Below are positions 11,843 through 31,678 of a stretch of 64,000 nt of DNA, one piece after another (positions within the stretch are counted from its first letter, which is position 1; every line of letters begins with the position of its first letter). The DNA comes from Bacillota bacterium (GTDB lineage Bacteria; Bacillota; Sulfobacillia; Symbiobacteriales; ZC4RG38). The stretch covers positions 1-64,000 of the forward strand of contig JAKKUO010000008.1 in assembly GCA_021890795.1 (NCBI GenBank), in the 5' to 3' direction. The notes beneath the pieces were generated by a model. That model saw nothing but the letters and a program-made list of their open reading frames with translations. It had not been told where the DNA came from and did not search any database. The position numbers and the translations under genes were made by a program.

Positions 11843-14524
11843 GTGCGGGTATCCATCGACTGGCTGAAGGAGTACGTGGAGGTCCAGGAGGAGCCCCGGC
11901 AGCTGGCAGAGCTTCTCACCGGCGTCGGGGTGAAGGTGGAGGCGATCACCCCCCTGAACCAGGGGGTCCGGGGGGTGGTGGTGGGCCGGGTGGAGCGGAT
12001 CGAGCGGCACCCCAACGCCGACGCCCTCTGGGTCTGCACCGTGGATGTGGGCCGGCCGGAGCGGCTCACCATCGTCACCGGGGCCCAGAACGTCCGGGCC
12101 GGGGACCTGGTGCCTGTGGCGGTGCCCGGGGCGACCATCGCGGGGGGCAAGGCCATCGGGGTGGCGGAGTTCCGGGGGATCCGGTCCGAGGGGATGCTCT
12201 GCTCGCCGGAGGAGCTGGGCATCGCCGAAGGGGGCGACGGGATCCTGATCCTGCCCCCGGACGCCCCGGTGGGGGCCGACGCCGCCCGGTACCTGGGCCT
12301 GGACGACACGGTGCTGGAGCTGGAGCTTACGGCCAACTACGCCGCCCACTGCCAGGCGATGCTCGGGGTGGCCCAGGAGTACGGCGCTATCACGGGCCAG
12401 ACCCCCCGGTGGCCGGAGCCCCGGGTGGCGGAGGGGCCGGACCCGGTGACCGGGGCCCGGGACATCCGGGACCTCATCCGGATCCGGATCGACGCGCCGG
12501 ACCTCTGCTACCGGTACGCCGGCCGGATCATCCGGGGGGTGAAGGTGGGCCCCTCCCCGGGGTGGCTCCAGGCCCGGCTCCGGGCCGCGGGGATGCGGCC
12601 GATCAACAACATCGTCGACGTCACCAACTACGTCATGCTGGAGCTTGGCCAGCCGCTCCACGCCTTTGACTACGACCGGATCGCCGGCCGGGAGATCATC
12701 GTCCGCCGGGCCCGGCCGGGAGAGCGCATTGTCACCCTGGACGGCCAGGAGCGGGTGCTGGGCGAAGACGTGCTGGTGATCGCCGACGGGGAGAAGCCCC
12801 AGGTGATCGCCGGGGTGATGGGGGCCGAGGACTCGGAGGTGCGGCCGGAGACCACCACCGTCTTCCTCGAGGCGGCGATCTTCGACGGCATCAACAACCG
12901 GCGGACCAGCCGGCGGTACGGGATCTTCTCCGAGGCGGCCAGCCGGTTCAGCCGGGGGGTCGACCCCTCCGGGGTGATCCGGGCCCTGGACCGGGCGGCG
13001 GAGCTCATCGTCCAGGTGGCCGGCGGTCAGGTGGTGGCAGGAGTGATCGACCTCTATCCCCGGGTCGCGGTGCCCAGGGTGATCCCGGTCCGGCTCCGGC
13101 GGCTCTGGACCGTCACAGGCCTCGCCCTGGAGGAGCGGCAGGTGGCGGAGTACCTGAAGCGCCTGGGCTTTGCCGTCCTGCCGGCGGAGGACCTGCTCTT
13201 CACCCCGGACGGGGAGGAAGCGGCCGGGGGGAGCGCTGGGGACGGCGCAGCCGGCGCCCCGGAGGGTGACGGGGCGGACGCCCTGGCGGCCCTGGCGGAG
13301 CGGGACCCGGTCTGGGCGGCGATGGCCCGGGTCTCCCCAGTGCCCGACGACCCGGCGAACCGGTCGGCCTGGCTCCGGGCGGCCCGGCAGGAGATCGCCC
13401 GGGCCCGGGAGACGGTCCGGCCCTGGGCCGCGGATGAGGCGGGGCTCCTGGTCGCGGTGGTGCCCACCCGGCGGCTGGACGTGGCCATCGAGGCGGATAT
13501 CGCCGAGGAGGTGGCCCGGCTCCACGGCTACAACCGGATCGAAGCCACCCTGCCCCAGGGGCCGGCGGTCCGGGGCGGCCGGAGCCCGCAGGCGGCCATC
13601 ACCCTCCGGGCCCGGCGGATCCTAGCCGGGGCGGGGCTGGTGGAGGTGATGACCCATTCCCTCACCCATCCCCGGGTCTTCGACCGGCTGCGGCTGCCGG
13701 CGGACAGCCCCCTCCGGCAGGCGGTGACTGTCCAGAACCCCCTGTACGAGGAGCGGTCCATCCTCCGCACCCTGCTGGCCCCCGCCCTTCTGGACGTGGC
13801 CCAGTACAACGTCAACCGGCAGGTGCGGGACCTGCAGATCTTCGAGATCAGCCGGGTCTACCATCCCCAGCCTGGGGAGAGCCTGCCTCGGGAGGAGGAG
13901 CGGCTGGGGATCCTGGCCCTGGGCCAGGGGCGGCCCAAGACCTGGGACCAGCCCGCCAAGCCGGTGGACTTCTACTACCTGAAAGGGGTGGTGGAGCACC
14001 TCCTGGACAGCCTCGGGGTGCCCAGGGAGGCCTGGCGGCTGGAGGCCGGCACGGTGCCCTTCCTCCATCCGGGCCGGACCGCGCGGCTCTTCGTCGGCGG
14101 CGAGGAGGTGGGCTACCTCGGGGAGCTGCATCCCGAGGTGCAGGCGGCCTGGGACCTGCCCGGACGGACCTACCTGGCGGAGCTGCGCTGGGCGCCCATC
14201 GTGGGGGCGGTGGCGGAGAAGCCGGGCTACACCCCGGTTCCCCGGTACCCGGCGGTGGGCCGGGACGTGGCCATGGTCATTGGCCAGGAGGTGCCCGCCG
14301 CCCGGGTGGAGGCGGCGATCCGGCAGGCCGGTGGGGAGCTCCTGGAGGAGGTGCGGCTCTTCGACCTCTACCAGGGGCCGCCGGTGCCGCCGGGCAAGCG
14401 CAGCCTCGCCTACTCCCTCACCTACCGGGCCCCGGACCGGACCCTCACCGACGCAGAGGTGGAGGCGGTCCACAACCGGGTGCGGCAGGCGCTCCAGGAT
14501 CTGGGGGCGGAGCTGCGGTCCTGA
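11843..14524 (+). CDS. pheT: Phenylalanyl-tRNA synthetase beta subunit
   Basis: Editing and tRNA-recognition subunit. Domains in order: the N-terminal segment and EMAP-type tRNA-binding domain (about residues 40-155), the B3/B4 editing region, the B5 domain, the class II-like core, and a C-terminal FDX-ACB domain. At 893 aa it is longer than the usual 800 or so. The excess is an Ala/Gly/Asp-rich then helical insertion at about residues 450-525, inside the B5 domain between its two conserved strands. The GTG at 11843 is fifteen bases after pheS. Confidence 0.95.
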   Translation: MRVSIDWLKEYVEVQEEPRQLAELLTGVGVKVEAITPLNQGVRGVVVGRVERIERHPNADALWVCTVDVGRPERLTIVTGAQNVRAGDLVPVAVPGATIAGGKAIGVAEFRGIRSEGMLCSPEELGIAEGGDGILILPPDAPVGADAARYLGLDDTVLELELTANYAAHCQAMLGVAQEYGAITGQTPRWPEPRVAEGPDPVTGARDIRDLIRIRIDAPDLCYRYAGRIIRGVKVGPSPGWLQARLRAAGMRPINNIVDVTNYVMLELGQPLHAFDYDRIAGREIIVRRARPGERIVTLDGQERVLGEDVLVIADGEKPQVIAGVMGAEDSEVRPETTTVFLEAAIFDGINNRRTSRRYGIFSEAASRFSRGVDPSGVIRALDRAAELIVQVAGGQVVAGVIDLYPRVAVPRVIPVRLRRLWTVTGLALEERQVAEYLKRLGFAVLPAEDLLFTPDGEEAAGGSAGDGAAGAPEGDGADALAALAERDPVWAAMARVSPVPDDPANRSAWLRAARQEIARARETVRPWAADEAGLLVAVVPTRRLDVAIEADIAEEVARLHGYNRIEATLPQGPAVRGGRSPQAAITLRARRILAGAGLVEVMTHSLTHPRVFDRLRLPADSPLRQAVTVQNPLYEERSILRTLLAPALLDVAQYNVNRQVRDLQIFEISRVYHPQPGESLPREEERLGILALGQGRPKTWDQPAKPVDFYYLKGVVEHLLDSLGVPREAWRLEAGTVPFLHPGRTARLFVGGEEVGYLGELHPEVQAAWDLPGRTYLAELRWAPIVGAVAEKPGYTPVPRYPAVGRDVAMVIGQEVPAARVEAAIRQAGGELLEEVRLFDLYQGPPVPPGKRSLAYSLTYRAPDRTLTDAEVEAVHNRVRQALQDLGAELRS

Positions 14525-14544
14525 GGAAGCTGGGGGGTCGCCGG

Positions 14545-14584
14545 GGGCCGCGGGTCGCCGCCTGGCGGGGGCGACCCGCGGCCC
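14545..14584 (+). terminator. Strong GC hairpin after pheT
   Basis: A perfect 15-bp stem (14545-14559 with 14570-14584) with a ten-base loop and no U-tract. Probably the end of the pheST unit. Confidence 0.55.
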
Positions 14585-14624
14585 GGCGCCGGCTCTGGCG
14601 GCCCGCGGCCTGGCGCCGGGCAAC

Positions 14625-14653
14625 TTGCCCCACTGCCGCCGTTGGTGTACGAT
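14625..14653 (+). promoter_or_regulatory. Promoter of the peroxiredoxin gene
   Basis: TTGCCC (14625-14630), a 17-base spacer and TACGAT (14648-14653), about 65 bases before the start codon. Confidence 0.5.
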
Positions 14654-14718
14654 GGGTGGTACGGCAGGCGGTGGCAGGGGGTGCCACCGCCCACACAGAT
14701 GCCGGCGGGGAGGTTGCC

Positions 14719-15192
14719 ATGAGCCCAGAGGTTCAGGTCGGTATGCCGGCGCCGGACTTCCGGCTGCCCTCCACCCACGGGGAGATCGCACTGAGCGACT
14801 TCCGGGGCAAGAACGTGGTGCTCTACTTCTACCCCCGGGACAACACCCCGGGCTGCACCCGGGAGGCGGTGGATTTCCAGGAGCGGCTCGACCAGTTCGC
14901 GGCGCTGGGCACCGTCGTCCTCGGGGTGAGCACCGATTCCCTGGCGTCCCACCAGCGGTTCTGCGAGAAGCAGAACCTCACCTTCCCCCTGCTCTCGGAC
15001 GCCGACGGGGCGGTGGCCACCCGGTACGGGGCCTACGGCGAGAAGAAGATGATGGGCAGGACCCACATGGGGATTATCCGCTCCACCTTCGTCATCGACC
15101 GGGACGGCATCGTCCGGTACGCCCGGCGCGGGGTGAAGGTGGAGGGTCATGCCGAGGAGGTGCTCCGGTTCATCCGGGAGCACCTGCGCTGA
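14719..15192 (+). CDS. bcp: Thioredoxin-dependent peroxiredoxin (Bcp/PrxQ type)
   Basis: Reduces hydrogen peroxide and organic peroxides using thioredoxin. The peroxidatic cysteine sits in NTPGCTREAVDF at residue 46. Most Bcp proteins have a resolving cysteine five residues later; here that position is valine, so this one is a 1-Cys form or uses the other visible cysteine in RFCEK. Length (157 aa) is normal. ATG at 14719 follows GGGGAGG by five bases; an earlier in-frame GTG at 14656 overlaps the promoter and is rejected. Confidence 0.92.
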   Translation: MSPEVQVGMPAPDFRLPSTHGEIALSDFRGKNVVLYFYPRDNTPGCTREAVDFQERLDQFAALGTVVLGVSTDSLASHQRFCEKQNLTFPLLSDADGAVATRYGAYGEKKMMGRTHMGIIRSTFVIDRDGIVRYARRGVKVEGHAEEVLRFIREHLR

Positions 15193-15215
15193 AGGAGGCG
15201 GGCACCAGCAGAACA

Positions 15216-15258
15216 GGGTACGGTCCCCACCCCGGTACCCGGAGTGGGGACCGTACCC
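15216..15258. terminator. Bidirectional hairpin between convergent genes
   Basis: A perfect 15-bp inverted repeat (15216-15230 with 15244-15258) with a 13-base loop lies between bcp and the reverse thiamine-binding gene. Neither strand has a U-tract. Confidence 0.6.
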
Positions 15259-15281
15259 GTCCCTGTCCGCCTTCCGGCGGC

Positions 15282-15605
15282 TCAGCCGGCCTCTCCCTTC
15301 AACTTCTCCTCCACCGACCGCACCTTGCCCTCCATGGAGGCGGGCTTGTCCCGGCGGTCGTCGATGCGAATGGAGGTGGAGACCCGCACGGCCCCGGCGG
15401 CAAAGACGGCCTCGTGGGCCTTGCGGATGGCAGCCAGGATCCGGTCCAGGTCCCCCTCCAGGATGGTGGCCATGGGGGTCAGCATCGTCTTCAGCCCTGC
15501 GGCCTTGGCTTCCTCTTCCAGCACCTGATGGGCCCGGGCCACCCAGGGGCTGAGGCTAGGGGTGGCGGTGCCCAGGGGCACGATGGTAACCTCGACAATG
15601 GCCAT
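15282..15605 (-). CDS. Thiamine-binding protein of the MTH1187/YqgV family
   Basis: A 107-residue ferredoxin-fold protein. The opening AIVEVTIVPLGTATPSLSPWV and the middle LTPMATILEGDLDRILAAI match the MTH1187 (former DUF77) family, which is known to bind thiamine or related pyrimidines; the physiological role is unclear. ATG at 15605 is used because a GGAGAGG site lies upstream; an in-frame extension to 15653 has no support. It is a single reverse gene convergent with bcp. Confidence 0.82.
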   Translation of the reverse strand: MAIVEVTIVPLGTATPSLSPWVARAHQVLEEEAKAAGLKTMLTPMATILEGDLDRILAAIRKAHEAVFAAGAVRVSTSIRIDDRRDKPASMEGKVRSVEEKLKGEAG

Positions 15606-15730
15606 GGGGTGGCACCTCTCCTTCCAAGGGGGCCGTTTTTCCCCTGAGGCCAATTTCGCCGGGAGCGGGCCGGCCCCCTGCCGGCCGGCAGCCCCTCGGC
15701 AGCGCCGCGGCAGATCCGCAGGGAGGCACC

Positions 15731-19537: not shown

Positions 19538-20449
19538 TTGTCCGGCGCGTTGTGGTACGAGGTCATCCGGGACGTACCGGCCCTGGCGCTGCGCACCATC
19601 CTGTTGTACGGTGTGGTGCTGGCCACCATGCGGTGGACCGGCAAGCGGACCGTGGCCACCATGGCCCCCTTTGACCTCGCCCTGATGATCATGATCAGCG
19701 AAGTCGCGGCCATTCCTATCACGGAACTGAACGTGGACCTGGCCCACGGCCTGGTACCGGTGATCCTGCTCGGCGCGCTCCACGTGCTGGTGACCACCAT
19801 CAACCTGCGGAGCCGCCGGTTTGAAGCCCTCACCGAGGGGAGGCCGACCCTCCTGATCGCCCGGGGCCGGGTCCTGATGGAGAACCTGCGCCGGGAGCGG
19901 GTCAGCCTCGCCGATCTGAGTGCCGCCCTCCGGCTGCAACAGGTCACCCACCTGGAGCAGGTGGAAGCGGCCTGGCTGGAGCCGGGGGGCGGCGTCAGCA
20001 TCCTCTTGCGGCCGGCGGACCGGCCGGTGACGGTCCGGGACCTCGCAGCCCTGGCCGGGGCGGTGGGGCCAGGGCGGGCAGCCCCGGCCGCGGGGACAGG
20101 GCGGGCTTCTCCGGCCCAGGGGCCGGGGCAGGCCCTGACCTGGCCGGCCGGAACGGGGCAGGCCTCCCCCGCGGCGGGAGCCCGGGCCCCGGGGGGCGGA
20201 GCGGCGTACGCGCCGGTGGCTTCTCGCCCCGGGGCCGGTGCGGAGCCGGCCCCCGGTTCCGGGGAGCCGCCGGACCTGGGGCTGATGGCCGACGACCTTC
20301 TCCCGGGCCTGGAGGCTTATGCGCCGGGCCCGGAGGGCGATGCGGCTGCGGGCGGGGGCCGGGAGGCTGGACCGGGGGCGCCGGTGGGGACCGGGGTGGC
20401 GGAGGAGGCCCCGGGCCGGGGGGGCGGCCGGCAGGATCCACCGGGGTAG
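19538..20449 (+). CDS. YetF/DUF421-family membrane protein with a long low-complexity tail
   Basis: The first 100 residues contain the hydrophobic segments and RILLYGVVLATMRWTGKR-like and MAPFDLALMIMISEV patterns of the YetF (DUF421) family, whose members occur widely in spore formers and include germination-related proteins. The soluble domain follows to about residue 175. The remaining 125 or so residues are a Gly/Ala/Pro-rich region of simple composition that I have not seen in the family. TTG at 19538 has a GGGGGGAGACGGG stretch upstream. Confidence 0.8.
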   Translation: MSGALWYEVIRDVPALALRTILLYGVVLATMRWTGKRTVATMAPFDLALMIMISEVAAIPITELNVDLAHGLVPVILLGALHVLVTTINLRSRRFEALTEGRPTLLIARGRVLMENLRRERVSLADLSAALRLQQVTHLEQVEAAWLEPGGGVSILLRPADRPVTVRDLAALAGAVGPGRAAPAAGTGRASPAQGPGQALTWPAGTGQASPAAGARAPGGGAAYAPVASRPGAGAEPAPGSGEPPDLGLMADDLLPGLEAYAPGPEGDAAAGGGREAGPGAPVGTGVAEEAPGRGGGRQDPPG

Positions 20450-20543
20450 GCGGAGAAGGGCTCAGCAGCCCGGCCGCCTGCGGAGCCCGGGGCGCGGTCC
20501 CCCGGGGTCCGGGACGGGCGGCACTTCCGGGGAGGGATCCCGC

Positions 20544-21644
20544 TTGGCTTTCCTGCTCCTCTTTGTCGACGGCATCGGCCTGGGCCGCCGGGATCCGGCG
20601 GCCAACGTCTTTCTGCGGGCCCGGATGCCCCACCTGGAAGGGCTCCTGGGGGGGCAACCCCTGGTGGCGGGGAGTCTGCCCGCCACCGGTCCCCGGTCCG
20701 CCGGGGTACCGGTGGACGCCACCCTGGGGGTGCCGGGGATCCCCCAGAGCGCCACCGGCCAGACCGCGATCCTCACCGGGGTGAACGCCCCCCGGGCCAT
20801 CGGCCGTCACCTCAACGGCTATCCGACTCCCCGGCTCCGGCAGATCCTGATGGCCCACAGCCTCTTCAAACGGATCCGGGACCTGGGCCGGACCGCCACC
20901 TTCCTCAACGCCTACCGCCCCGAGTTCTTCCGGTGGCTCGAGGCCACCGGGGGCGACCCGGACCGGGCGGATGAGGAGGTTCTGGACCGGATTTTCAACC
21001 CCGCCGGCGCCGCCCCAGGGTCCGGGCTGCCGCCGGAGTGGTCGGCCCGGGCCGCCCGGCGGTACCGGCCCTCGGCTTCCACGGTCGCGGTCCTGGCCGC
21101 CGGCCTCCCCTTCCGCACCCTGGACGACCTGGCCGCGGGGGAGGCGGTCTACCACGACATCACCCGGGCGACCCTTCGGGCCCAGGGCTACCCGATCCCC
21201 CTCCGGGCCCCGGAGGAGGCGGGAGCGGACGCGGCCCGGGTGGCCCGGCGGTACGACTTTGCCATGTTCGAGTACTTTCTGACCGATCTCGCCGGCCACG
21301 CCCAGGATCCCGACCAGGCGGTGGCGGTGCTGGAGACCTGGGACCGGTTCCTCGGCGGGGTGCTCGCTGGTCTCGACCCGGACCGGGATACGGTGCTCAT
21401 CCTGAGCGACCACGGCAACCTGGAGGACCTGGCGGTGCGGACCCATACCCGGAACCCGGTACCGGCCATCGCCTGGGGCGCCGGGGCTCAGGCGCTGGTG
21501 GGTGGGCTTCGGGACCTGACCGATGTCGCCGGGGCCATTCTCTCCGCCCTGGGTCTCTCCTCTCCGCCCCGGAAACCGCCCCTGGACACCGTTGGCAGGG
21601 CCCCGGATGAACCGCACGGCGGGCCCCACCCGTCCAAAGGGTAG
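20544..21644 (+). CDS. Alkaline-phosphatase-superfamily metalloenzyme (phosphoglycerate-mutase-like)
   Basis: The protein begins LLLFVDGIGLGRRDPAANVF and contains IPQSATGQTAILTGVN and ILSDHGNLEDL. These are the two-metal site motifs of the phosphopentomutase, independent phosphoglycerate mutase and alkaline phosphatase group. Length (366 aa) is shorter than iPGM, and the insert domain is different, so the substrate is unknown. TTG at 20544 is eight bases after GGGGAGG; a longer frame from 20319 would overlap the upstream yetF-type gene. Confidence 0.75.
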   Translation: MAFLLLFVDGIGLGRRDPAANVFLRARMPHLEGLLGGQPLVAGSLPATGPRSAGVPVDATLGVPGIPQSATGQTAILTGVNAPRAIGRHLNGYPTPRLRQILMAHSLFKRIRDLGRTATFLNAYRPEFFRWLEATGGDPDRADEEVLDRIFNPAGAAPGSGLPPEWSARAARRYRPSASTVAVLAAGLPFRTLDDLAAGEAVYHDITRATLRAQGYPIPLRAPEEAGADAARVARRYDFAMFEYFLTDLAGHAQDPDQAVAVLETWDRFLGGVLAGLDPDRDTVLILSDHGNLEDLAVRTHTRNPVPAIAWGAGAQALVGGLRDLTDVAGAILSALGLSSPPRKPPLDTVGRAPDEPHGGPHPSKG

Positions 21645-21663
21645 CAGCAGCGAGGTGACACCC

Positions 21664-23832
21664 ATGTGGCGACGCCGCATTCTGGCACTCATTGCGGGGC
21701 TGGCCCTGGCGGCCCTGCCCGGGGCGGGACTCCGGGCGGTGGCCGGTCTCCGGAACGCCCGGCCGAACGCCCTGGCCGATCCCGTGGCTGTTGTGGACCC
21801 GGGAGAACCCGGGGCCGCCGGGCGCGACAACGGAGCCCCCACCTTGTTGGACCTCACGCTCCCCGCCCGGGTGGCGGCTGAGGAGCCCTTTCCCATCACC
21901 GCCCGGGTGCTCCCCCCGCCGGCCGGGGTCCGGGACGCGGTGGTGGTCCTCCGTTCCCCCGGTGGGCAGGAGGTGGAGGTCCGGCTCCTCGGGGACAGCC
22001 GGGGCGAGGTGCTCACCGGCACCGGCCTCCTCCCGGCCTTTGCTGAGCCGGGGGCGTGGACGGTGGAGCGGGTCTTCCTGGTGGATAACCTGCGGCAGGT
22101 CTTTGCCGTGGATCGGGGGCCGGGGGTGGGCCGGCGGCTCGAGGTGGAGGGCCCGGGACCGGTGGACCTGACGCCGCCGGCGGTGCTCCAGGTGACCGTC
22201 TCCCCCGAGGAGGCGGCCCCGGGGCAGCCCCTCCTCATCGCCGCGGTGGTGACCGACGACCTGGCGGGGGTCCGGTCGGTCCGGGCGGCCCTGGCCCCGA
22301 CGGCCCGGCCGGATCCGGGCTGGTGGAACGAGGTCTCCCTCCGGTGGAACCCCGGGGCGGGCCGCTGGGAGGGAATCGCCTACGCGCCCTTTGACCCGGG
22401 CCCCAGCGGCCAGGTCTACGTCCGGTGGGTGGAGGCCCGGGATCGGGCGGGTAACGCCAGCCTGTGGCAGGCGGACCTGGTGGGGCCCCGGGAAGCCTGG
22501 TCGGTCCGGGTGACCGCCCCCCGGCAGGTGCCCGGGGCCCTCAAGACCACCGCCCGACTGGCGGTGCTCCACGGGGAGGAGCTGCCCTTTGACGAGTGGG
22601 TGCGCCGGGACCGTCAGCGGGTCCTCGGCTACCTGGCCCTGAGCCCGGCACCCCCCGGCCTCCGGCAGACCATCCGGCAGGAGCTGGATGCCCTGGTGGC
22701 CGCGGCCGGCGCGGTGGCGGCGGAAGCCTACCGGCCCCCGGCCGGGGGGCTGGCGGTGGTGCCGCCGGCCACCACGGGCAAGGCCTGGGCCCTGGCCGGG
22801 GCCATCCGGGCCCGGCTGCTCCTGCTGATGGAAATGGACCGGCGGGAGGGCCGGCGGCCGGACCTGCCGGCTGCCGGGCCCGCGCAGATCCAGGCCGCCT
22901 ACCTGCTCCCCGACAGCGTCGGCCTCCGGCCCCTGCCGCCGGCGGTGCTGGAGACCTTGGGGCCCGCCTACGCGGCCTTTATTGCCCAGGTGGTGGCAGA
23001 GAGCAGCATCCCCGCGCCGCTCCTGGCGGCGGCCCACCGGGGGCCTACCTGGGGCGCCGCGGACTTCCTGCCGGACCACATGATCTGGGTGGCCCCCGGC
23101 AGCTACGACCAGTACCTGGGCAAGCACAAGGCAGGGGAGATGGAGCTGATCCTGCCCCTCGACCCGCTCCACCTCCAGGACCCCACGGGCCTGGCGGGGA
23201 CGGTGATCCACGAGTTGGGCCACCACCTGCACATGGTGCTCCTCGATGCCCCCTCCCCCCGCTCGCCCCTCTGGCAGGAGTACCTGCGGATCCGGGGCGG
23301 CTACGAGTTCGCGCCGGCGACCCTGGGCCACGACGCCTGGCCCGAGGAGAACTTCGCCGAGGACATGGTCTACCTCTTTGCCCCCCGGCCGGTGGCCGCG
23401 GCTCGGTTTGACCCCCTCAGCTTTGCCCGGCAGTCCTACCCCCGGCTGGACCAGGAGCCCGAGATGGCCCAGGCCCTGCGCCAGTTCGTGGCGGAGCGGA
23501 TGGTGGCCGGCATCGAGCCGCCCCTCACCGTGGACTTGCCCGCGGCGGAGCTGGTGCTTGCCGCCGGGGAGCGGCTCACCCTCACCGGCCGGTGGCAGCC
23601 CGGCGGGGAGGTGACGGGGTACTGGGTGGAGGGCCACCCTGCGGAGATCCTGGGGGGCGCCTACCCCCTCCAGCCCCGGGGCGTCGTGACCGGGAGGGCC
23701 GGGGCCGACGGCCGGTTCCGGCTGGAGCTCACCGGGCTCCCGGCGGGCCGGCCGGCGGTGGTGATGGTCGAGGCCCGGGACGGCCAGGGGCAGGTCCGGC
23801 GGAGCCGCAGCTTCTGGGTGCTGGCGCCGTAA
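21664..23832 (+). CDS. Secreted or membrane-anchored zinc metalloprotease (HELGHH), uncharacterised
   Basis: A 722-residue protein with an N-terminal signal sequence (WRRRILALIAGLALAALPGA). Two Ig-like beta domains seem to follow (about residues 50-280), the second with VSPEEAAPGQPLLIAAVV typical of bacterial adhesion folds. The catalytic motif HELGHH lies at residues 516-521, and ENFAEDM 46 residues later offers Glu566 as the third zinc ligand, as in gluzincins. Another beta domain ends the protein (about 620-722). I do not recognise the family. It starts 20 bases after the preceding enzyme gene and may share its transcript. Confidence 0.7.
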   Translation: MWRRRILALIAGLALAALPGAGLRAVAGLRNARPNALADPVAVVDPGEPGAAGRDNGAPTLLDLTLPARVAAEEPFPITARVLPPPAGVRDAVVVLRSPGGQEVEVRLLGDSRGEVLTGTGLLPAFAEPGAWTVERVFLVDNLRQVFAVDRGPGVGRRLEVEGPGPVDLTPPAVLQVTVSPEEAAPGQPLLIAAVVTDDLAGVRSVRAALAPTARPDPGWWNEVSLRWNPGAGRWEGIAYAPFDPGPSGQVYVRWVEARDRAGNASLWQADLVGPREAWSVRVTAPRQVPGALKTTARLAVLHGEELPFDEWVRRDRQRVLGYLALSPAPPGLRQTIRQELDALVAAAGAVAAEAYRPPAGGLAVVPPATTGKAWALAGAIRARLLLLMEMDRREGRRPDLPAAGPAQIQAAYLLPDSVGLRPLPPAVLETLGPAYAAFIAQVVAESSIPAPLLAAAHRGPTWGAADFLPDHMIWVAPGSYDQYLGKHKAGEMELILPLDPLHLQDPTGLAGTVIHELGHHLHMVLLDAPSPRSPLWQEYLRIRGGYEFAPATLGHDAWPEENFAEDMVYLFAPRPVAAARFDPLSFARQSYPRLDQEPEMAQALRQFVAERMVAGIEPPLTVDLPAAELVLAAGERLTLTGRWQPGGEVTGYWVEGHPAEILGGAYPLQPRGVVTGRAGADGRFRLELTGLPAGRPAVVMVEARDGQGQVRRSRSFWVLAP

Positions 23833-23941
23833 AGCGGGGATTGCGCCTCTCCGGAGCCCACGGCACAATGGGAAAGGCGCGGGGAAGGGCGCGGCCGGCC
23901 CGGCCGCGCCCTGGCGCCGCGAAAGGACGGGATGAACGGCG

Positions 23942-26359
23942 ATGGATGAGCGGGTCCTCCGCACCCTCGAATTCGACAAGATCCGAGAGCGGCTGGTGGA
24001 GAAGGCCGCCACCCGGATGGGGAAAGAGCTCTGCGCCTCCCTGATGCCGTCCACGAAGATGCTGGAGGTCCGGCACCGGCTCCGGGAGACCTCCGAGGCC
24101 CGGGCGCTTCTGCGCTCCGGCAGCTCCATCCCCCTCGGGGGCATCCACGACCTCCGGCCAGTGGTCCGCCGCGCGGCCCTGGGCGGGATCCTGGAGCCCG
24201 CGGAACTCCTCGACGTGGCCGACACCGCCGCCGCGTGCCGGCGGCTGAAGAAGTTCCTGCTCGACCATCGGGACGAGGCCCCCACCCTGGCCGCGTACGG
24301 CAACCAGATCGGTGTTTTCGCCAACCTGGAGGCGGAGATCCGGCAGGCCATCACCGATGAGGGCGAGGTGGCCGACGACGCCTCCCCGGCCCTCAGCCAG
24401 ATCCGGAAGCAGATGCGGGTCCTCCAAGCCCGGGTCCGGGAGCGGCTGGAGGCCATGATCCGCAACCCGAACATGCGGACCTACCTCCAGGACGCGATCA
24501 TCACCATCCGGGACGACCGCTACGTCCTCCCGGTCAAGGTCGAGTACCGCTCCCAGGTGCCCGGGATCGTCCACGACCAGTCCGCGAGCGGCTCCACCCT
24601 CTACATCGAGCCCATGGCGGTGGTGGAGCTGAACAACGAGCTGAAGCGCCTCGCGCTGGAGGAGCGGGAGGAGATCCGGCGGATCCTCACCCGGCTGTCG
24701 GACCTCGTGGCCGCCGAGGCCGAGGCCTGGGACGCCACCCTGGAGGCGGTGGGGAGAATCGACCTCTGCGCCGCCAAGGGGCTCCTCTCCCAGGAGATGG
24801 ACGCGGTGGCCCCGGAGCTGAACGACCGGGGGGTGGTGGTGATCCGCCAGGGCCGGCACCCCCTGCTGCCGGGGAGGCCCGTGCCCATCGACCTGCACCT
24901 GGGCAAGACCTTCGACGTCCTGGTCATCACCGGCCCCAACACCGGCGGCAAGACGGTCACCCTGAAGACTGTCGGCCTCTTTGCCCTGATGGCCCAGGCC
25001 GGTCTCCATGTCCCCGCGGCCTACGGGACGGAGCTGGCGGTCTTCCCCCAGGTCTTTGCCGACATCGGCGACGAGCAGTCTATCGAACAGTCCCTCTCCA
25101 CCTTCAGCTCCCACATGAGCCGGATCGTCGAGATCCTGAACCAGCTCGAGCCCGGGGCCCTGGTGCTCCTCGATGAGATCGGGGCCGGTACCGATCCCAC
25201 CGAGGGCGCGGCCCTGGCCATGGCGATCCTCGACCACCTCCAGGCCCGGGGGGCCCGGGTGGTGGCTACCACCCACTACTCGGAGCTGAAGGCCTTCGCC
25301 TACAGCCGCCCCCGGGTGGAGAACGCCTCGGTGGAGTTCGACCTGGAGACCCTGCGGCCGACCTATAAACTGGCCATCGGCGTTCCCGGGGCCTCCCAGG
25401 CCTTTGAGATCTCCCTGCGCCTGGGGCTCAGCCCCGTGCTGGTGGAACGGGCCCGGGGGTTCCTCACCCGGGACGAGGAGAAGGTGGAGCGGCTCCTTGC
25501 CCAGATCCAGGCCTCCCGGGCGGAGGCGGAGCGGGAGCGGGAGGCGGCCTACCGGGCCCGGGCGGAAGCGGAGCGGCTCCGGGCCGAGGCGGAGGCCCGG
25601 CTGGAGGAGGCCCGGCGCCGGGAGAAGGAGGTGGTGGAGCGGGCCCGGGCGGAGGCCGCCCGGATCCTCCAGGAGGTGCGCCGGGAGGCCGAGACTCTGA
25701 TCGAGGATCTGAAGGCCGCCCGGCGGCAGCAGCTGGCCCTGGAGCAGGAGCGGGCCATCGAGGCGGCCCGGAGCCGGGTCCGGGGGCTGGAGCAGCGGGT
25801 CGCGGCCCTGCAGCCGGCGGAGGCCCCGCCGGCCGGACCGCCGCCGGAGGACCTCCGGCCCGGGGAGGAGGTCCGGGTCCGATCCCTGGACGTCCGGGCG
25901 ACGGTCCTCACCCCGCCCGACGCCGACGGAAACCTCCAGGTCCAGGCCGGAATCCTGAAGGTGACGGTGCACATCACCGACGTGGAGCGGCTGGAGCCGG
26001 CCAAGGCGGGGACCGGCGCCCGGCGGGGCGCGCAGGGGCTCCCGGCGGGAGCGGCGGGTCCGGCCGGCTACCGGCCCGGCGGCGTACCCCTCGCTGCCGG
26101 CAAGGCCGCGGGCTTCCGGCCGGAGCTGGACCTCCGGGGAGTGACGGTGGAGGAGGCCCTGGCCAAGGTGGACAAGCACCTGGACGACGCGGTCCTCGCC
26201 GGCGCACCCCAGGTCCGGATCATCCACGGCCGGGGCACCGGGGCCCTGCGCCAGGCGATCCAGAAGTTCCTCAAGGAGCACCCCGCGGTGGTCAGCTTCC
26301 GGCTGGGGAGCGTCGGCGAGGGGGGCGACGGGGTGACCATCGTCCGGCTGCAGGAGTAA
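23942..26359 (+). CDS. mutS2: Endonuclease MutS2 (Smr-domain MutS paralogue)
   Basis: DNA- and ribosome-acting ATPase that suppresses recombination and, in Bacillus, helps rescue collided ribosomes. Walker A is GPNTGGKTVTLKT at about residue 330 and Walker B is DEIGAGTDP. A long coiled coil (about residues 500-620) precedes a KOW-like region and the C-terminal Smr domain, which starts LDLRGVTVEEAL and has IIHGRGTGALR. The mismatch-recognition domain of MutS is absent, as expected. Its stop is one base from the stop of the reverse gene ytrI. Confidence 0.95.
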   Translation: MDERVLRTLEFDKIRERLVEKAATRMGKELCASLMPSTKMLEVRHRLRETSEARALLRSGSSIPLGGIHDLRPVVRRAALGGILEPAELLDVADTAAACRRLKKFLLDHRDEAPTLAAYGNQIGVFANLEAEIRQAITDEGEVADDASPALSQIRKQMRVLQARVRERLEAMIRNPNMRTYLQDAIITIRDDRYVLPVKVEYRSQVPGIVHDQSASGSTLYIEPMAVVELNNELKRLALEEREEIRRILTRLSDLVAAEAEAWDATLEAVGRIDLCAAKGLLSQEMDAVAPELNDRGVVVIRQGRHPLLPGRPVPIDLHLGKTFDVLVITGPNTGGKTVTLKTVGLFALMAQAGLHVPAAYGTELAVFPQVFADIGDEQSIEQSLSTFSSHMSRIVEILNQLEPGALVLLDEIGAGTDPTEGAALAMAILDHLQARGARVVATTHYSELKAFAYSRPRVENASVEFDLETLRPTYKLAIGVPGASQAFEISLRLGLSPVLVERARGFLTRDEEKVERLLAQIQASRAEAEREREAAYRARAEAERLRAEAEARLEEARRREKEVVERARAEAARILQEVRREAETLIEDLKAARRQQLALEQERAIEAARSRVRGLEQRVAALQPAEAPPAGPPPEDLRPGEEVRVRSLDVRATVLTPPDADGNLQVQAGILKVTVHITDVERLEPAKAGTGARRGAQGLPAGAAGPAGYRPGGVPLAAGKAAGFRPELDLRGVTVEEALAKVDKHLDDAVLAGAPQVRIIHGRGTGALRQAIQKFLKEHPAVVSFRLGSVGEGGDGVTIVRLQE

Positions 26360-28677: not shown

Positions 28678-28701
28678 ACCGCCCCCCGGCCGGGGGGCGG
28701 T
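28678..28701 (-). terminator. 24-bp perfect palindrome after the penicillin-binding protein gene
   Basis: A perfect palindrome (28678-28701) touches the stop codon of the reverse PBP gene and precedes the HD gene. It would fold into a GC-only hairpin without a U-tract. Confidence 0.5.
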
Positions 28702-31559
28702 CAGCCGTCGCCCCTCGGCCGGAAGAATTGGGACAGGTTCAGCCAGGAAGGGTCGCTCCCCTGGCCCGGGGCTTCCGGTTTGCCGCCGCCTCGGTTGCCG
28801 GAGCCCCCGGGGGTCTGGCCCCCGCCGGACTGGCTGCCGCCCTCGGACGGCGGCTGGTTCCCCTGGGGCGGCTGGTTCCCCTGGGGCGGCGGCTGTTGGA
28901 CCGGAGGCTGGTCGCCCGGAGGCTGGGTACCCCCGGGCCCCGGGCTAGGCCCCTGGCCACCCGGAGACCCGGGGCCGGGCGGTTCCTGCCCCGGGGCCCC
29001 CTGGCCCGGCGGCCGGCGCCCTGGATCCCCATGCCCAGGCGGTTGCACCGGCTGTCCGCCCTCGCCAGGGCCACCCGGCCCGGTCTCACCCCCGGGGAGC
29101 CAGGGGAGGTCGGGGTTCTCCAGGCCGGGGCCTTGGTTCCCGGCACCCCCGCCGGGTCCCGGGGTGCAGTACTCCGTGGGCAGGGTCATGGCCGCGTCCT
29201 TGGGCACGTACCGAGGGTTATAGGGATCCGTCGGATGCCGGGGGAAGGGCGGCCGGACCAGGAAGACCCGCTGCTCAGGCCGGCCCGGGCACCCGGGCTG
29301 CCACAGCCGCCAGACCGTTACCGTCTCGCCATTTGGCCGGGTCACCGTCTCCTGTACCACGTAGGCCGTGACCCACCAGTCCACGTCGTACTGGGTGGGC
29401 TGGCTCTCCGCGGCGAAGAGGGCCCGGGTGGTCTTCGGGCAGAGGGGGCTCGGGAGCAGCCCCGTCTTCTCGCAGATCTCCACCTCGACCACGTTCTGCG
29501 GCCGGGGCCAGTCCGCTGGCGGCCCGTCCCGGTAGACCTGCTTCATGAACTCGTACCAGATGGAGACCGGGACGTAGGCGCCGGTATACGGCAGGTACCG
29601 GGGCTTATCCCGGTTGTCGTACCCGTTCCAGACGCCGACTACCAGGTCGGTGGAGAAGCCGAGGAACCAGGCGTCGATGTTGTGCTCCGTAGTGCCGGTC
29701 TTCCCCGCGAAGGGCCAGCCATTGAAGCCGCCGGTGCGGCCCCGGGCGGTCCCCTGCCGGATGGTCTCCTTCATCGCCTGGATCATCAGGTAGGCGGTGG
29801 AGGGCTTGATCACCTGCCGCTGCTGGGGCCGGGCTTCGTAGATCACCGTGCCGTTCCGGTCGACGATCTTCTCGATCACCACCGGGTCGATCCGCTGCCC
29901 CAGGTTGGCGATGGTGGAGTACGCGTCGGTCATCTCCAGCAGGGTGACTCCCTGGGTGAGGCCCCCCAGCCCCATGGCCAGGTTCATGTCGTTGGCAGGG
30001 CCGGACTTGACCAGGCTGCGGATACCCAGGGCCTCGGCGATGGCCGCGGCCCGCTCGACGCCCACCTTGTTGAGGACCTGGACGGCCGCCGCGTTCTTGG
30101 ACTGGGCCACTGCCCGCCAGAGGGGGATCAGCCCCTCGTAGCTCTTCTCGAAGTTCTCCGGCCAGAGCTGCTTGAGCTGCGGGTCCCACCGGATGGGGGC
30201 GTCGTCCACCGCGGTGCCCGTGCCGTAGCCCAACAGCTCGATGGCGGGGACATAGACCGCGATGGGCTTGAAGGTGGACCCCGGCTGGCGGCGGACGTCC
30301 GTCGCCCGGTTCAGCTCCCGCATCGCCTGGTGGGTGCGGCCGCCGACGATGGCCCGGACCCGGCCGGTCTTGACCTCCTTGACCACCATCGCACCCTGGA
30401 TCCACTCCTCCGGGTGCTCCGGGTCCATCCGGAGTTGCTTCCAGTTCTTGGCCTGCTCGTTCATCACCCGGCGCAGGGTCTCCTCCGCCAGGCGCTGGAG
30501 GTCCGGGTCCATGGCGGTGTAGATCTTGTAGCCGCCCCCGTAGAGCTCCTCGGCATCAAAGGGCTGGATGCCGTACTGCTCCGCCAGACCCGGGGTGGTC
30601 AGGATGTTGATCACGTAGTCGACGTAGTGGGCGCCGGTGAAGTCGATGGGCTGCCCTTCGTCCGTCTGTACGGCTTCGGCCGTCTGGTCGGACTGGCGCT
30701 CGCCCGCCAGGGTCAGCTTCTCGGCCTTGGCCGCGGCAGCCTGCTCCGGGGTGATAAAGCCCCACTTGGCCATCAGGTCGAGGACGATCTCCTGCCGGCG
30801 CTTGGCCTCGTTGTAGTCCACATACGGGTTGAGGGCGTTGGGCGCGGGCAGGATCCCGGCCAGCATCGCCCCTTCCGCCAGGGTCAGCTGGTCCGGGGTC
30901 TTGCCGAAGTAGTACTGGGCGGCGGCGTAGATGCCGTAGGCGCTGCCGCCGAAGTGGACCTCGTTCAGGTACCGCTCCAGGATCTCCTCCTTGGTGTAGA
31001 CCCGCTCGAGCTTGAGGGCCAGGATCATCTCCTTGACCTTGCGCTCCAGGGTCTGGTCGAGGGTGAGGAACTGGTTCCGGGCCAGCTGCTGGGTGATGGT
31101 GCTGGCCCCCTGCAGGGTCCCCTTGCCGGTGAGGAAGTACTTGAGGTCCGCCCAGGCCGCGCCGAGGATGCGATAGGGGTCAATCCCCTTGTGGTGCCAG
31201 AACCGGACGTCCTCGCTGGCCACCACCGCGTCCTGGACGTGCTTCGGGATCTGCTTGATCGGGGTGTAGATCCGGTTCTCGCCGCTGCTGGGCACCAGGG
31301 TGTAGACCTTGTTGCCCTTGGCGTCGTAGATTTCCGAGGAAAGGTCGGACATGAACTCGTCGAGGTTGGCGGTGAGGTGCTCGACTTCCTTGTACTGGTC
31401 GTATACGTACATCGCAGCGGCGACGCCCGCGGCGAGCATCAAGAAGAACAAGGCAACAAAGGTGTAACCCACAAAGCGCCAGAACCGGCGGCGGGCACGC
31501 TTCGGTCTCTTCCCGGCCCGAAGGGATGGCGCGGTTTGCGCGGGGTACCGTGGCGGCAA
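28701..31559 (-). CDS. Class A penicillin-binding protein (PBP1A family)
   Basis: Bifunctional peptidoglycan synthase. A basic cytoplasmic leader and one membrane anchor (about residues 27-52) precede a GT51 transglycosylase domain with SEDVRFWHHKGID and GASTITQQLARN. The transpeptidase motifs are STFK, SKN and KTGTT, all intact. From about residue 840 the tail is Pro/Gly/Gln-rich and likely disordered in the wall. TTG at 31559 is chosen because GGAGGTGG lies seven bases upstream; an in-frame TTG at 31631 has no ribosome site. Confidence 0.93.
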   Translation of the reverse strand: MPPRYPAQTAPSLRAGKRPKRARRRFWRFVGYTFVALFFLMLAAGVAAAMYVYDQYKEVEHLTANLDEFMSDLSSEIYDAKGNKVYTLVPSSGENRIYTPIKQIPKHVQDAVVASEDVRFWHHKGIDPYRILGAAWADLKYFLTGKGTLQGASTITQQLARNQFLTLDQTLERKVKEMILALKLERVYTKEEILERYLNEVHFGGSAYGIYAAAQYYFGKTPDQLTLAEGAMLAGILPAPNALNPYVDYNEAKRRQEIVLDLMAKWGFITPEQAAAAKAEKLTLAGERQSDQTAEAVQTDEGQPIDFTGAHYVDYVINILTTPGLAEQYGIQPFDAEELYGGGYKIYTAMDPDLQRLAEETLRRVMNEQAKNWKQLRMDPEHPEEWIQGAMVVKEVKTGRVRAIVGGRTHQAMRELNRATDVRRQPGSTFKPIAVYVPAIELLGYGTGTAVDDAPIRWDPQLKQLWPENFEKSYEGLIPLWRAVAQSKNAAAVQVLNKVGVERAAAIAEALGIRSLVKSGPANDMNLAMGLGGLTQGVTLLEMTDAYSTIANLGQRIDPVVIEKIVDRNGTVIYEARPQQRQVIKPSTAYLMIQAMKETIRQGTARGRTGGFNGWPFAGKTGTTEHNIDAWFLGFSTDLVVGVWNGYDNRDKPRYLPYTGAYVPVSIWYEFMKQVYRDGPPADWPRPQNVVEVEICEKTGLLPSPLCPKTTRALFAAESQPTQYDVDWWVTAYVVQETVTRPNGETVTVWRLWQPGCPGRPEQRVFLVRPPFPRHPTDPYNPRYVPKDAAMTLPTEYCTPGPGGGAGNQGPGLENPDLPWLPGGETGPGGPGEGGQPVQPPGHGDPGRRPPGQGAPGQEPPGPGSPGGQGPSPGPGGTQPPGDQPPVQQPPPQGNQPPQGNQPPSEGGSQSGGGQTPGGSGNRGGGKPEAPGQGSDPSWLNLSQFFRPRGDG

Positions 31560-31634
31560 CGGGGATCCACCTCCATAGCCCCAAGACAATTCGACCTGCC
31601 GGGGCGCCTTCCTGTCCCTTGCAAGACGCAAGAT

Positions 31635-31678
31635 TTGCCGACGGCTCCGAGACTATGCTAAAATGGAAGCCAAGTCAA
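31635..31678. promoter_or_regulatory. Overlapping divergent promoters for tyrS (+) and the PBP gene (-)
   Basis: Forward: TTGCCG (31635-31640), 18 bases, extended -10 TGCTAAAAT (hexamer 31659-31664). Reverse: TTGACT (complement of 31673-31678), 17 bases, TAGTCT (complement of 31650-31655). The two promoters occupy the same DNA, so binding of RNA polymerase to one should exclude the other. Confidence 0.55.

What the first reader, a model, noticed from the sequence alone, without database searches (positions are those of the whole stretch)
21664..23832. Possible new family of exported HELGHH metalloprotease with Ig-like domains
The protein has a signal sequence, HELGHH at residues 516-521 and a candidate third ligand Glu566 in ENFAEDM, between beta-rich flanks. 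I cannot match it to a known peptidase family.
Basis: partly seen in the sequence, partly recalled or inferred. Interest (0 to 1): 0.5.

Follow-up and report, generated by a model that had tools for sequence, protein, structure and literature searches.

The report
Unannotated family of exported zinc proteases
The gene encodes an exported enzyme that probably cuts proteins with a zinc atom; it belongs to a bacterial family without a name in the libraries searched, whose fold most resembles the Pro-Pro endopeptidase / lethal factor catalytic domain, with Ig-like modules at both ends in this bacterium.

Summary
Window 21664-23832 (+) is a real, conserved gene: 722 aa, signal peptide, HELGHH at 516-521, ENFAEDM at 562-568. 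Pfam-A, NCBIfam and PDB sequence searches give nothing for it at E<=10. It is not an orphan: a ~300-residue core (residues 289-617) recurs, in full or over its catalytic stretch, at E<=0.001 in 19 of 154 genomes of its class and 44 of 398 sampled across its phylum. A model of the core (pLDDT 86, pTM 0.86), aligned to 806 of Foldseek's 814 candidate PDB chains, gave M34 peptidases as all 34 top rows (anthrax lethal factor Z 8.5; PPEP-1/-3 Z 7.0-7.4), though Foldseek itself was not significant. Ig-like flanks are supported by fold. One correction: the third zinc ligand is probably Glu562, not Glu566. Glu562 is kept in 42 of 43 rows; the exception also lost His516 and Glu517 yet keeps Glu566. It also fits the PPEP ligand by spacing and Glu-Glu tandem. 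The oxyanion-hole Tyr of PPEPs, 7 residues before the ligand Glu, is absent (1 of 42 rows). I read it as an unclassified, M34-like gluzincin family. Peptidase activity and substrate are inferred.

The parts
21664..23832 (+). Whole gene, 722 aa, exported M34-like metallopeptidase (P0001)
   Evidence: open frame, coding GC pattern, purifying selection against L002
21652..21658 (+). GAGGTGA, ribosome-binding site 5 bases before ATG 21664
   Evidence: sequence printed; reading is mine
21664..21744 (+). Signal peptide, residues 1-27, likely cut AVA|G
   Evidence: by eye; hydrophobic helix 2-16 in model
21835..22086 (+). First Ig/FN3-like beta sandwich, residues 58-141
   Evidence: strands in model, middling confidence; multi-domain FN3/Ig rows of high rmsd starting at 53-61
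22180..22524 (+). Second Ig/FN3-like beta sandwich, residues 173-287
   Evidence: Z 12.0, rmsd 2.5, 107 aligned, Cwp6 5j72_A
22528..23514 (+). Conserved core, residues 289-617: helical N-part plus M34-like catalytic fold
23209..23226 (+). HELGHH, residues 516-521: zinc ligands His516 and His520, general base Glu517 (roles by analogy)
   Evidence: His516 42, Glu517 41, His520 43 of 43 rows
23281..23283 (+). Tyr540, in the W537-x2-Y540-x3-R544 motif; candidate oxyanion stabiliser (guess)
   Evidence: Y in 41 of 43 rows, F in 2
23347..23349 (+). Glu562, probable third zinc ligand (second Glu of the Glu561-Glu562 tandem)
   Evidence: 42 of 43 rows; register with the PPEP ligand
23359..23361 (+).
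   Evidence: Glu in 42 of 43, Asp in L003, kept in the degenerate row L099
23518..23829 (+). C-terminal FN3-like beta sandwich, residues 619-722
   Evidence: Z 8.9, rmsd 2.1, 82 aligned, 5z1a; FN3 rows 6msv 8.4, 2obg 8.3, 4lxo 7.9
20319..21644 (+). Upstream gene (true start probably further in), alkaline-phosphatase-superfamily 'Metalloenzyme' domain; ends 19 bases before the ATG, so possibly co-transcribed
23942..26359 (+). Downstream gene, MutS2

Best explanation
A secreted zinc endopeptidase of the gluzincin type. The signal peptide takes it out of the cell. His516 and His520 of HELGHH and Glu562 on a later helix hold the zinc; Glu517 activates the water; Glu566 and Asp567 support the site as second-shell residues. 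The catalytic part has the arrangement of M34 peptidases (Pro-Pro endopeptidases, lethal-factor catalytic domain), preceded by a helical segment outside the part that aligns with PPEPs. The Tyr that stabilises the oxyanion in PPEPs is missing; the near-invariant Tyr540 (or Trp559) may do that job. The Ig/FN3-like modules at both ends probably hold the enzyme at the cell wall or present extracellular protein to it. The likely task is trimming or releasing proteins at the cell's own surface. Shown here: the gene, the motif, the conservation, the family and the predicted fold. Inferred: zinc, peptidase activity, role of each residue, place of action and substrate.
For: Family: a profile of 5 rows, then of 30, finds the core at E<=0.001 in 14 then 19 of 154 class genomes and in 41 then 44 of 398 phylum genomes; part of these matches cover only the catalytic stretch. 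Fold: core model pLDDT 86, pTM 0.86; of the 50 VIA-align rows shown, ranks 1-34 are all M34 (anthrax lethal factor 8.5 to 6.9; PPEP-1/-3 7.4 to 7.0, rmsd 3.4-4.5 over 143-167 residues, 17-21% identity). Ligands: His516 42, Glu517 41, His520 43, Glu562 42 of 43 rows; His520 to Glu562 is 42 residues (35-51 over 42 rows), against 40 in PPEP-3 (His157 to Glu197); PPEP-1 and -3 also have a Glu-Glu tandem that includes the ligand. Export: 38 of 42 relatives have a hydrophobic signal-like segment before or at the start of the trimmed core (hydropathy only). Surface: SLH domains in 10 of 38 relatives, Cu_amine_oxidN1 in 5, glucosaminidase in 2, CWB2 in 1; most of those I looked at singly are distant members that match only over the catalytic stretch, but the fuller member L005 has three SLH repeats. 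Weak sequence echo of Pfam ATLF in 4 of 38 relatives (best E 0.0038, below cut-off) and of Zmp1/PPEP-1 and lethal factor chains at E 0.14-1.8.
Against: Foldseek alone gives no significant match to the core (best E 0.54). The PPEP oxyanion Tyr, 7 before the ligand Glu, is absent: 1 of 42 rows has Tyr there. P0001 and its orthologue also lack three residues just before the ligand helix, which puts Trp559 at -3 instead of -6. PDB sequence matches are not significant: the best for the core profile are CapP toxin (E 0.055) and another zincin, 3e11 (0.11), before lethal factor (0.14) and Zmp1 (0.87); the 5-row profile finds neither M34 protein. Other subthreshold echoes exist in relatives: Peptidase_M78 E 0.0011, DUF6055 0.0019, NCBIfam MYPU_1760 metalloprotease 9.8e-6 but 25 bits against a cut-off of 175. 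No gene for a surface substrate lies next to it in the window. Two relatives have lost catalytic residues (L090, L099), so not every member is an active enzyme.
Confidence: 0.72

Rival explanations
1. A true member of peptidase family M34, working as a Pro-Pro endopeptidase on surface proteins.
For: M34 chains fill ranks 1-34; similar ligand spacing and Glu-Glu tandem; secreted or surface-bound like PPEPs.
Against: PF07737 (ATLF) does not match P0001 nor any of 154 class genomes at E<=0.001; best relative seen 17.4 bits against a cut-off of 27.4. The PPEP oxyanion Tyr is missing. A helical N-part lies outside the PPEP-1-aligned range 73-326 of the core model.
Confidence: 0.12
2. A gluzincin whose nearest kin is another branch (for example M1-like), with the M34 resemblance reflecting only the shared zincin core.
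For: M1 rows (ERAP1 6.8, M. tuberculosis aminopeptidase N 6.5, LTA4 hydrolase 6.2) and a Bacteroides putative metallopeptidase 4l7a (6.1, 187 aligned) follow closely; Foldseek E 0.54.
Against: The M1 spacing HExxH-x18-E (recalled) would put the ligand at Glu539, which is Glu in only 17 of 43 rows and Arg or Lys in 10. M34 rows rank first throughout and the PPEP-1 rows have lower rmsd.
Confidence: 0.2
3. A non-peptidase: the zinc site serves another chemistry (for example an HExxH oxygenase or esterase) or binds without catalysis.
For: The top Foldseek hit, though insignificant, is an HExxH alpha-ketoglutarate oxygenase (8s5f, E 0.54); catalytically degenerate relatives exist (L090, L099).
Against: 8s5f falls to Z 5.2, rmsd 7.0. 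Export, the Glu517 general base (41 of 43) and a Glu third ligand fit peptidases.
Confidence: 0.08

Closest known systems
Pro-Pro endopeptidases PPEP-1/Zmp1 (C. difficile) and PPEP-3 (Geobacillus thermodenitrificans), peptidase family M34
   Same: Secreted; HExxH helix; Glu ligand on a later helix, in a Glu-Glu tandem, 40 residues after the second His in PPEP-3 (42 here); fold match Z 7.0-7.4, rmsd 3.4-4.5 (PMC12828418 passages).
   Different: No significant sequence match; oxyanion Tyr at -7 absent; extra helical N-part; Ig/FN3 flanks; Pro-Pro specificity untested.
Anthrax lethal factor catalytic domain (family M34, Pfam ATLF PF07737)
   Same: Best-ranked fold (Z 8.5, rmsd 5.3, 179 aligned).
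   Different: Below Pfam's cut-off in the rows examined; 9-12% identity in the aligned rows. Nothing here suggests a toxin: no delivery domain in the Pfam scan, and the one named relative is a compost MAG.
M1 aminopeptidases (ERAP1, LTA4 hydrolase)
   Same: Gluzincin-type catalytic arrangement, Z 6.2-6.8.
   Different: Ligand spacing x18 not conserved: Glu539 in 17 of 43.
N-terminal sandwich of Cwp6 (C. difficile) and FN3 domains
   Same: Fold of residues 173-287 and 619-722.
   Different: Only the accessory modules match, not the enzyme.

Membership tests
Gluzincins (clan MA(E)) | HExxH with a Glu third ligand C-terminal to it | tested here: met
   by conservation: H516 42, E517 41, H520 43, E562 42 of 43 rows; metal not measured
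Gluzincins (clan MA(E)) | zincin fold with the two motif helices | tested here: met
   core model pLDDT 86; helices 507-526 and 560-572; ranks 1-36 are M34 or M1 enzymes; Foldseek alone not significant
M34 (ATLF/PPEP) | sequence match to Pfam PF07737 over its curated cut-off | tested here: not met
   P0001 no match at E<=10; 0 of 154 class genomes at E<=0.001; best relative seen L018 17.4 bits vs 27.4
M34 (ATLF/PPEP) | catalytic-domain fold closest to M34 | tested here: inconclusive
   ranks 1-34 of 50 shown are M34, but Z 6.9-8.5, PPEP rows tied with ERAP1 6.8, and Foldseek E 0.54
M34 (ATLF/PPEP) | oxyanion-hole Tyr 7 residues before the ligand Glu (Tyr190/Glu197 in PPEP-3) | tested here: not met
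   Tyr at -7 in 1 of 42 rows; Trp at -6 in 36 of 42; PPEP numbering
Pro-Pro endopeptidases | cleavage between two prolines | not testable with these tools
   needs a peptide assay
M1 | HExxH-x18-E (recalled) | tested here: not met
   position 539 is Glu in 17 of 43, Arg in 7, Lys in 3
Ig/FN3-like domains (flanks) | beta-sandwich fold | tested here: met
   Z 12.0 for 173-287, Z 8.9 for 619-722; the first domain 58-141 appears only in multi-domain rows of high rmsd

The most novel reading that the evidence does not exclude
A new peptidase family of its own, sister to M34, in which the PPEP oxyanion Tyr has been replaced by a Trp-centred site with Tyr540 as the stabiliser, spread through deep Bacillota as a surface-protein trimming enzyme and having given rise to a lineage of catalytically dead surface paralogues.
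Probability: 0.35. Interest if true: 0.55.

Novelty: new variant of a known kind. Interest (0 to 1): 0.4.

Why it matters
No Pfam-A or NCBIfam model finds the window's core, and none that would name the enzyme reached its cut-off in the relatives I looked at singly, although 44 of 398 genomes sampled across the phylum carry the core or its catalytic stretch. It offers an outgroup to M34, a family (from memory, a small one) that includes a major toxin component and the Pro-Pro endopeptidases, and so a way to ask how those specialised enzymes arose from ordinary surface proteases. The degenerate sister lineage is a natural test of which residues matter.

Tried and rejected
Glu566 as third ligand: rejected in favour of Glu562, see report. 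Glu539 as an M1-type ligand: rejected, not conserved. The long antisense ORF 21397-24474 (-) as the real gene: rejected, its codon-position GC (0.83/0.60/0.81) lacks the high third position and the + frame is conserved. An earlier start at 21523: rejected. A phage or plasmid origin: no match by tblastn in phages or plasmids at E<=0.01, no relative among 53 pattern matches in viral contigs, no BFVD fold match at E<=0.001. Fold search with the full-length model: filled by FN3/Ig domains, so silent on the core; repeated with the core alone.

Gene neighbourhood as a clue to function: 8 loci fetched, 40 neighbouring ORFs of 100 aa or more listed, 10 of them, from 7 of the 8 loci, scanned. One shared neighbour: an HhH-GPD DNA-repair protein beside the member in G495 and G514, two genomes of one family (f141). 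The rest scanned differ. Not followed further.

Not listed and so not excluded: other zincin families. Not done: MEROPS search, searches outside Bacillota other than one close-relative scan of genome contigs, profile-profile comparison with M34 (no M34 alignment was built), signal-peptide prediction by program, distances in the models (coordinates not available in the Python box).

How rows were chosen: I took, for each of 49 loci (L007-L055), the ORF with HExxH, preferring one with a following ExxA[ED]; loci without HExxH (L017, L022, L023, L024, L026) dropped out there. L090 and L099 (the same places as L017/L023 and L022/L024) came back without that filter and are in A6; L026, and the fragment L046, are not. 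Matches over the catalytic stretch only (for example L025, L044, L045, L047, L049-L052, L054, L055) were left out of A6, so its counts lean to the fuller members. A3 (38 rows) includes those and gives His516, Glu517, His520, Glu562 and Ala565 as invariant, but lacks the two degenerate rows. The C20 tree has long, weakly placed branches.

Full report
What is there. Window 21664-23832 (+) encodes a 722-residue protein. The frame has the codon-position GC pattern of a gene (0.81/0.54/0.93) while the possible upstream extension 21523-21663 does not, and GAGGTGA precedes the ATG at 21664. The same-genus orthologue L002 has 71 amino-acid differences in 722, 23 of them in the 330 residues 288-617; dN is 0.054 and dS 0.229. 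The residues after the ATG read as a signal peptide (my reading).

No described family by sequence. P0001 gives no family in Pfam-A or NCBIfam at E<=10 and no PDB chain at E<=10. Pfam's ATLF family finds nothing at E<=0.001 in any of 154 genomes of the class, the window's own included. Among 38 relatives scanned one by one, enzyme families appear only weakly: Peptidase_M78 (best E 0.0011), DUF6055 (0.0019), ATLF (0.0038) in Pfam (25 of 29 families were shown), metzin_BF0631 (0.00032) and MYPU_1760 metalloprotease (9.8e-6) in NCBIfam (25 of 32 shown). Where I looked at single rows these stay far under the curated cut-offs (ATLF 17.4 of 27.4 bits; MYPU_1760 25 of 175).

It has many relatives. 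A first protein search matched 5 of 61 genomes, the own one included. The window and the four places outside it, aligned over the core (A2), gave a profile that matched 14 of 154 genomes of the class and 41 of 398 drawn across the phylum at E<=0.001. A 30-row profile (A5) raised this to 19 of 154 and 44 of 398, and found 13 of 17 genomes of one class (one search is the same set again) and 10 of 29 of another. Part of these matches cover only the catalytic stretch. The smallest full members are little more than a signal-like segment and the core (L036, L037: 1 residue after the core). SLH (10 of 38), Cu_amine_oxidN1 (5), glucosaminidase (2) and CWB2 (1) domains occur among the relatives. Of the carriers seen singly, L005 is a fuller member with three SLH repeats; L025, L045, L047-L050 and L053-L055 match only over the catalytic stretch or little more. 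A hydrophobic signal-like segment lies before or at the start of the trimmed core in 38 of 42 relatives (a hydropathy threshold, not a signal-peptide program). No relative was found among phage, plasmid or viral records at the sensitivities used.

The organism. The contig of G001 that holds the orthologue has the length (9735) of QGUP01000045.1, MAG 'Bacillota bacterium isolate ZC4RG38', and both match P0001 at 90% over 1-722. The MAG's accession series is in the data list of a thermophilic composting study (PMC8434746, one passage seen). PMC9826295 (passages seen) names a family ZC4RG38 under Symbiobacteriales. That the window comes from that lineage is an inference from these.

Fold. The full-length model (32-row alignment, pLDDT 68, pTM 0.59) shows a beta sandwich at 60-141, a second at about 173-287, a helical and catalytic part 309-615 and a C-terminal sandwich. 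The second matches Cwp6 (Z 12.0, rmsd 2.5, 107 aligned) and the last matches sandwich domains (5z1a, Z 8.9, rmsd 2.1, 82 aligned; FN3 rows 7.9-8.4). So 'Ig-like' is right for these two. The first is supported by the model and by multi-domain rows with high rmsd only. The core modelled alone with 43 rows is confident (pLDDT 86, pTM 0.86). Foldseek has no significant PDB match for it (best E 0.54). Of Foldseek's 814 highest chains, 806 were aligned by VIA-align: the first 34 rows are all M34 peptidases, anthrax lethal factor at Z 8.5-6.9 and PPEP-1/Zmp1 and PPEP-3 at Z 7.4-7.0, followed by ERAP1 (6.8) and, lower, other M1 enzymes. The PPEP-1 rows have the lower rmsd (3.4-3.8 over 143-148) and 19-21% identity. 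By the tool's own notes Z under 8 may reflect a common arrangement, and more for helical models, so I take the gluzincin fold as met and M34 as the nearest known kin with moderate confidence. A profile of the core touches lethal factor and Zmp1/PPEP-1 chains at E 0.14-0.96, below significance, behind CapP toxin (0.055) and 3e11 (0.11) and mixed with other zincins.

Third ligand. In 43 aligned rows (A6) His516 is kept in 42, Glu517 in 41, His520 in 43, Glu562 in 42, Glu566 in 42 and Asp567 in 42. Counts alone do not separate 562 from 566. Three facts do. First, row L099 has Tyr-Gly in place of His516-Glu517 and His in place of Glu562, yet keeps Ala565-Glu566-Asp567: the ligand set is lost together and Glu566 is not part of it. 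This is one row. Second, L003 has Asp at 566. Third, in PPEP-3 the ligand Glu197 lies 40 residues after His157 and is the second of a Glu196-Glu197 pair, and PPEP-1's pair Glu184-185 includes its ligand (PMC12828418, passages); here Glu562 lies 42 after His520 and is the second of Glu561-Glu562, while Glu566 would be 46. Position 561 is Glu in 25 of 43 rows. The counts lean to fuller members, see Tried and rejected. No distance was measured.

Departure from M34. PPEPs have an oxyanion-hole Tyr (Tyr190 in PPEP-3, Tyr178 in PPEP-1), 7 residues before the ligand Glu in PPEP-3. Here Tyr is at that place in 1 of 42 rows; instead Trp stands at -6 in 36 of 42. The window protein and L002 lack three residues there, so their Trp559 lies at -3. 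The best-kept Tyr of the region is Tyr540 (41 of 43, Phe in 2), in a W-x2-Y-x3-R motif. That it takes over the oxyanion role is a guess.

How it most likely works. Exported; zinc held by His516, His520 and Glu562; water activated by Glu517; substrate an extracellular or surface protein, with the Ig/FN3 modules as tether or reader. By analogy PPEP-1 releases C. difficile by cutting its adhesins (PMC11460543, abstract start and passages); Zmp1 needed its HExxH Glu and second His for full activity (PMC3841139, passages). Whether the present family cuts at prolines is open; the PPEP-like C. difficile protein CD1597 showed no such activity in its tests, a warning that fold does not give specificity. 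In the window the neighbours are an alkaline-phosphatase-superfamily protein upstream and MutS2 downstream, which give no hint of a substrate. In one relative (G049, L119) a gene about 1 kb away, with two small ORFs between, encodes an SLH protein with invasin/Big_1 domains, a possible substrate.

Tree. In a tree of the 43 cores the window and L002 join L003 of the same order (98/92), and these three share Ig-like sequence before the core (alignment). Deep branches are long and the place of the window clade within the family is not resolved.

Literature. Searches of the open-access library returned PPEP and lethal-factor papers but none that I recognised from its listing as describing this family. 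A phylogenetic study of the PPEP domain (PMC8610288, seen only as a reference) is not held and may bear on it. From memory, other conserved-domain collections hold further M34-like models; these were not tested.

Verdict. New variant of a known kind: an unclassified, M34-like gluzincin family found across several classes of Bacillota.

Noticed in passing
L099 (G030:C135) and L090 (G077:C110): Two relatives with damaged active sites form a supported clade (99/99). L099 lacks the equivalents of His516, Glu517 and Glu562; L090 has Leu for Glu517. G030 also carries an intact member (L011). They look like a lineage of dead paralogues.
   Followed up: partly
L119:1-2013 (-), about 1 kb from the member at L119:3009-6245: Encodes an SLH protein with Invasin_D3/Big_1 domains, a possible surface substrate or partner.
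   Followed up: no
L116:4232-5110 (-) and L118:1672-2358 (+): In two genomes of one family (G495, G514) an HhH-GPD DNA-repair protein lies beside the peptidase gene, in the same orientation.
   Followed up: no
window 20319-21644 (+): Alkaline-phosphatase-superfamily 'Metalloenzyme' protein ending 19 bases before the peptidase ATG; its first 75 or so residues look untranslated by eye, so the start is probably further in.
   Followed up: no
window 28701-31652 (-), repeats at 28848-28895: PBP1A-family penicillin-binding protein with a short 18-base tandem repeat near its C-terminal end.
   Followed up: no
L053/L105 and L048/L107: Distant relatives join an HExxH...AED catalytic stretch to a glucosaminidase domain and an SLH domain in one protein, a combination worth a look.
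   Followed up: no
window 14280-15647 (+): 455-aa ORF without any Pfam (E<=0.01) or NCBIfam (E<=0.0001) match; it did not pass my coding-GC filter, so the true gene here is unclear.
   Followed up: no
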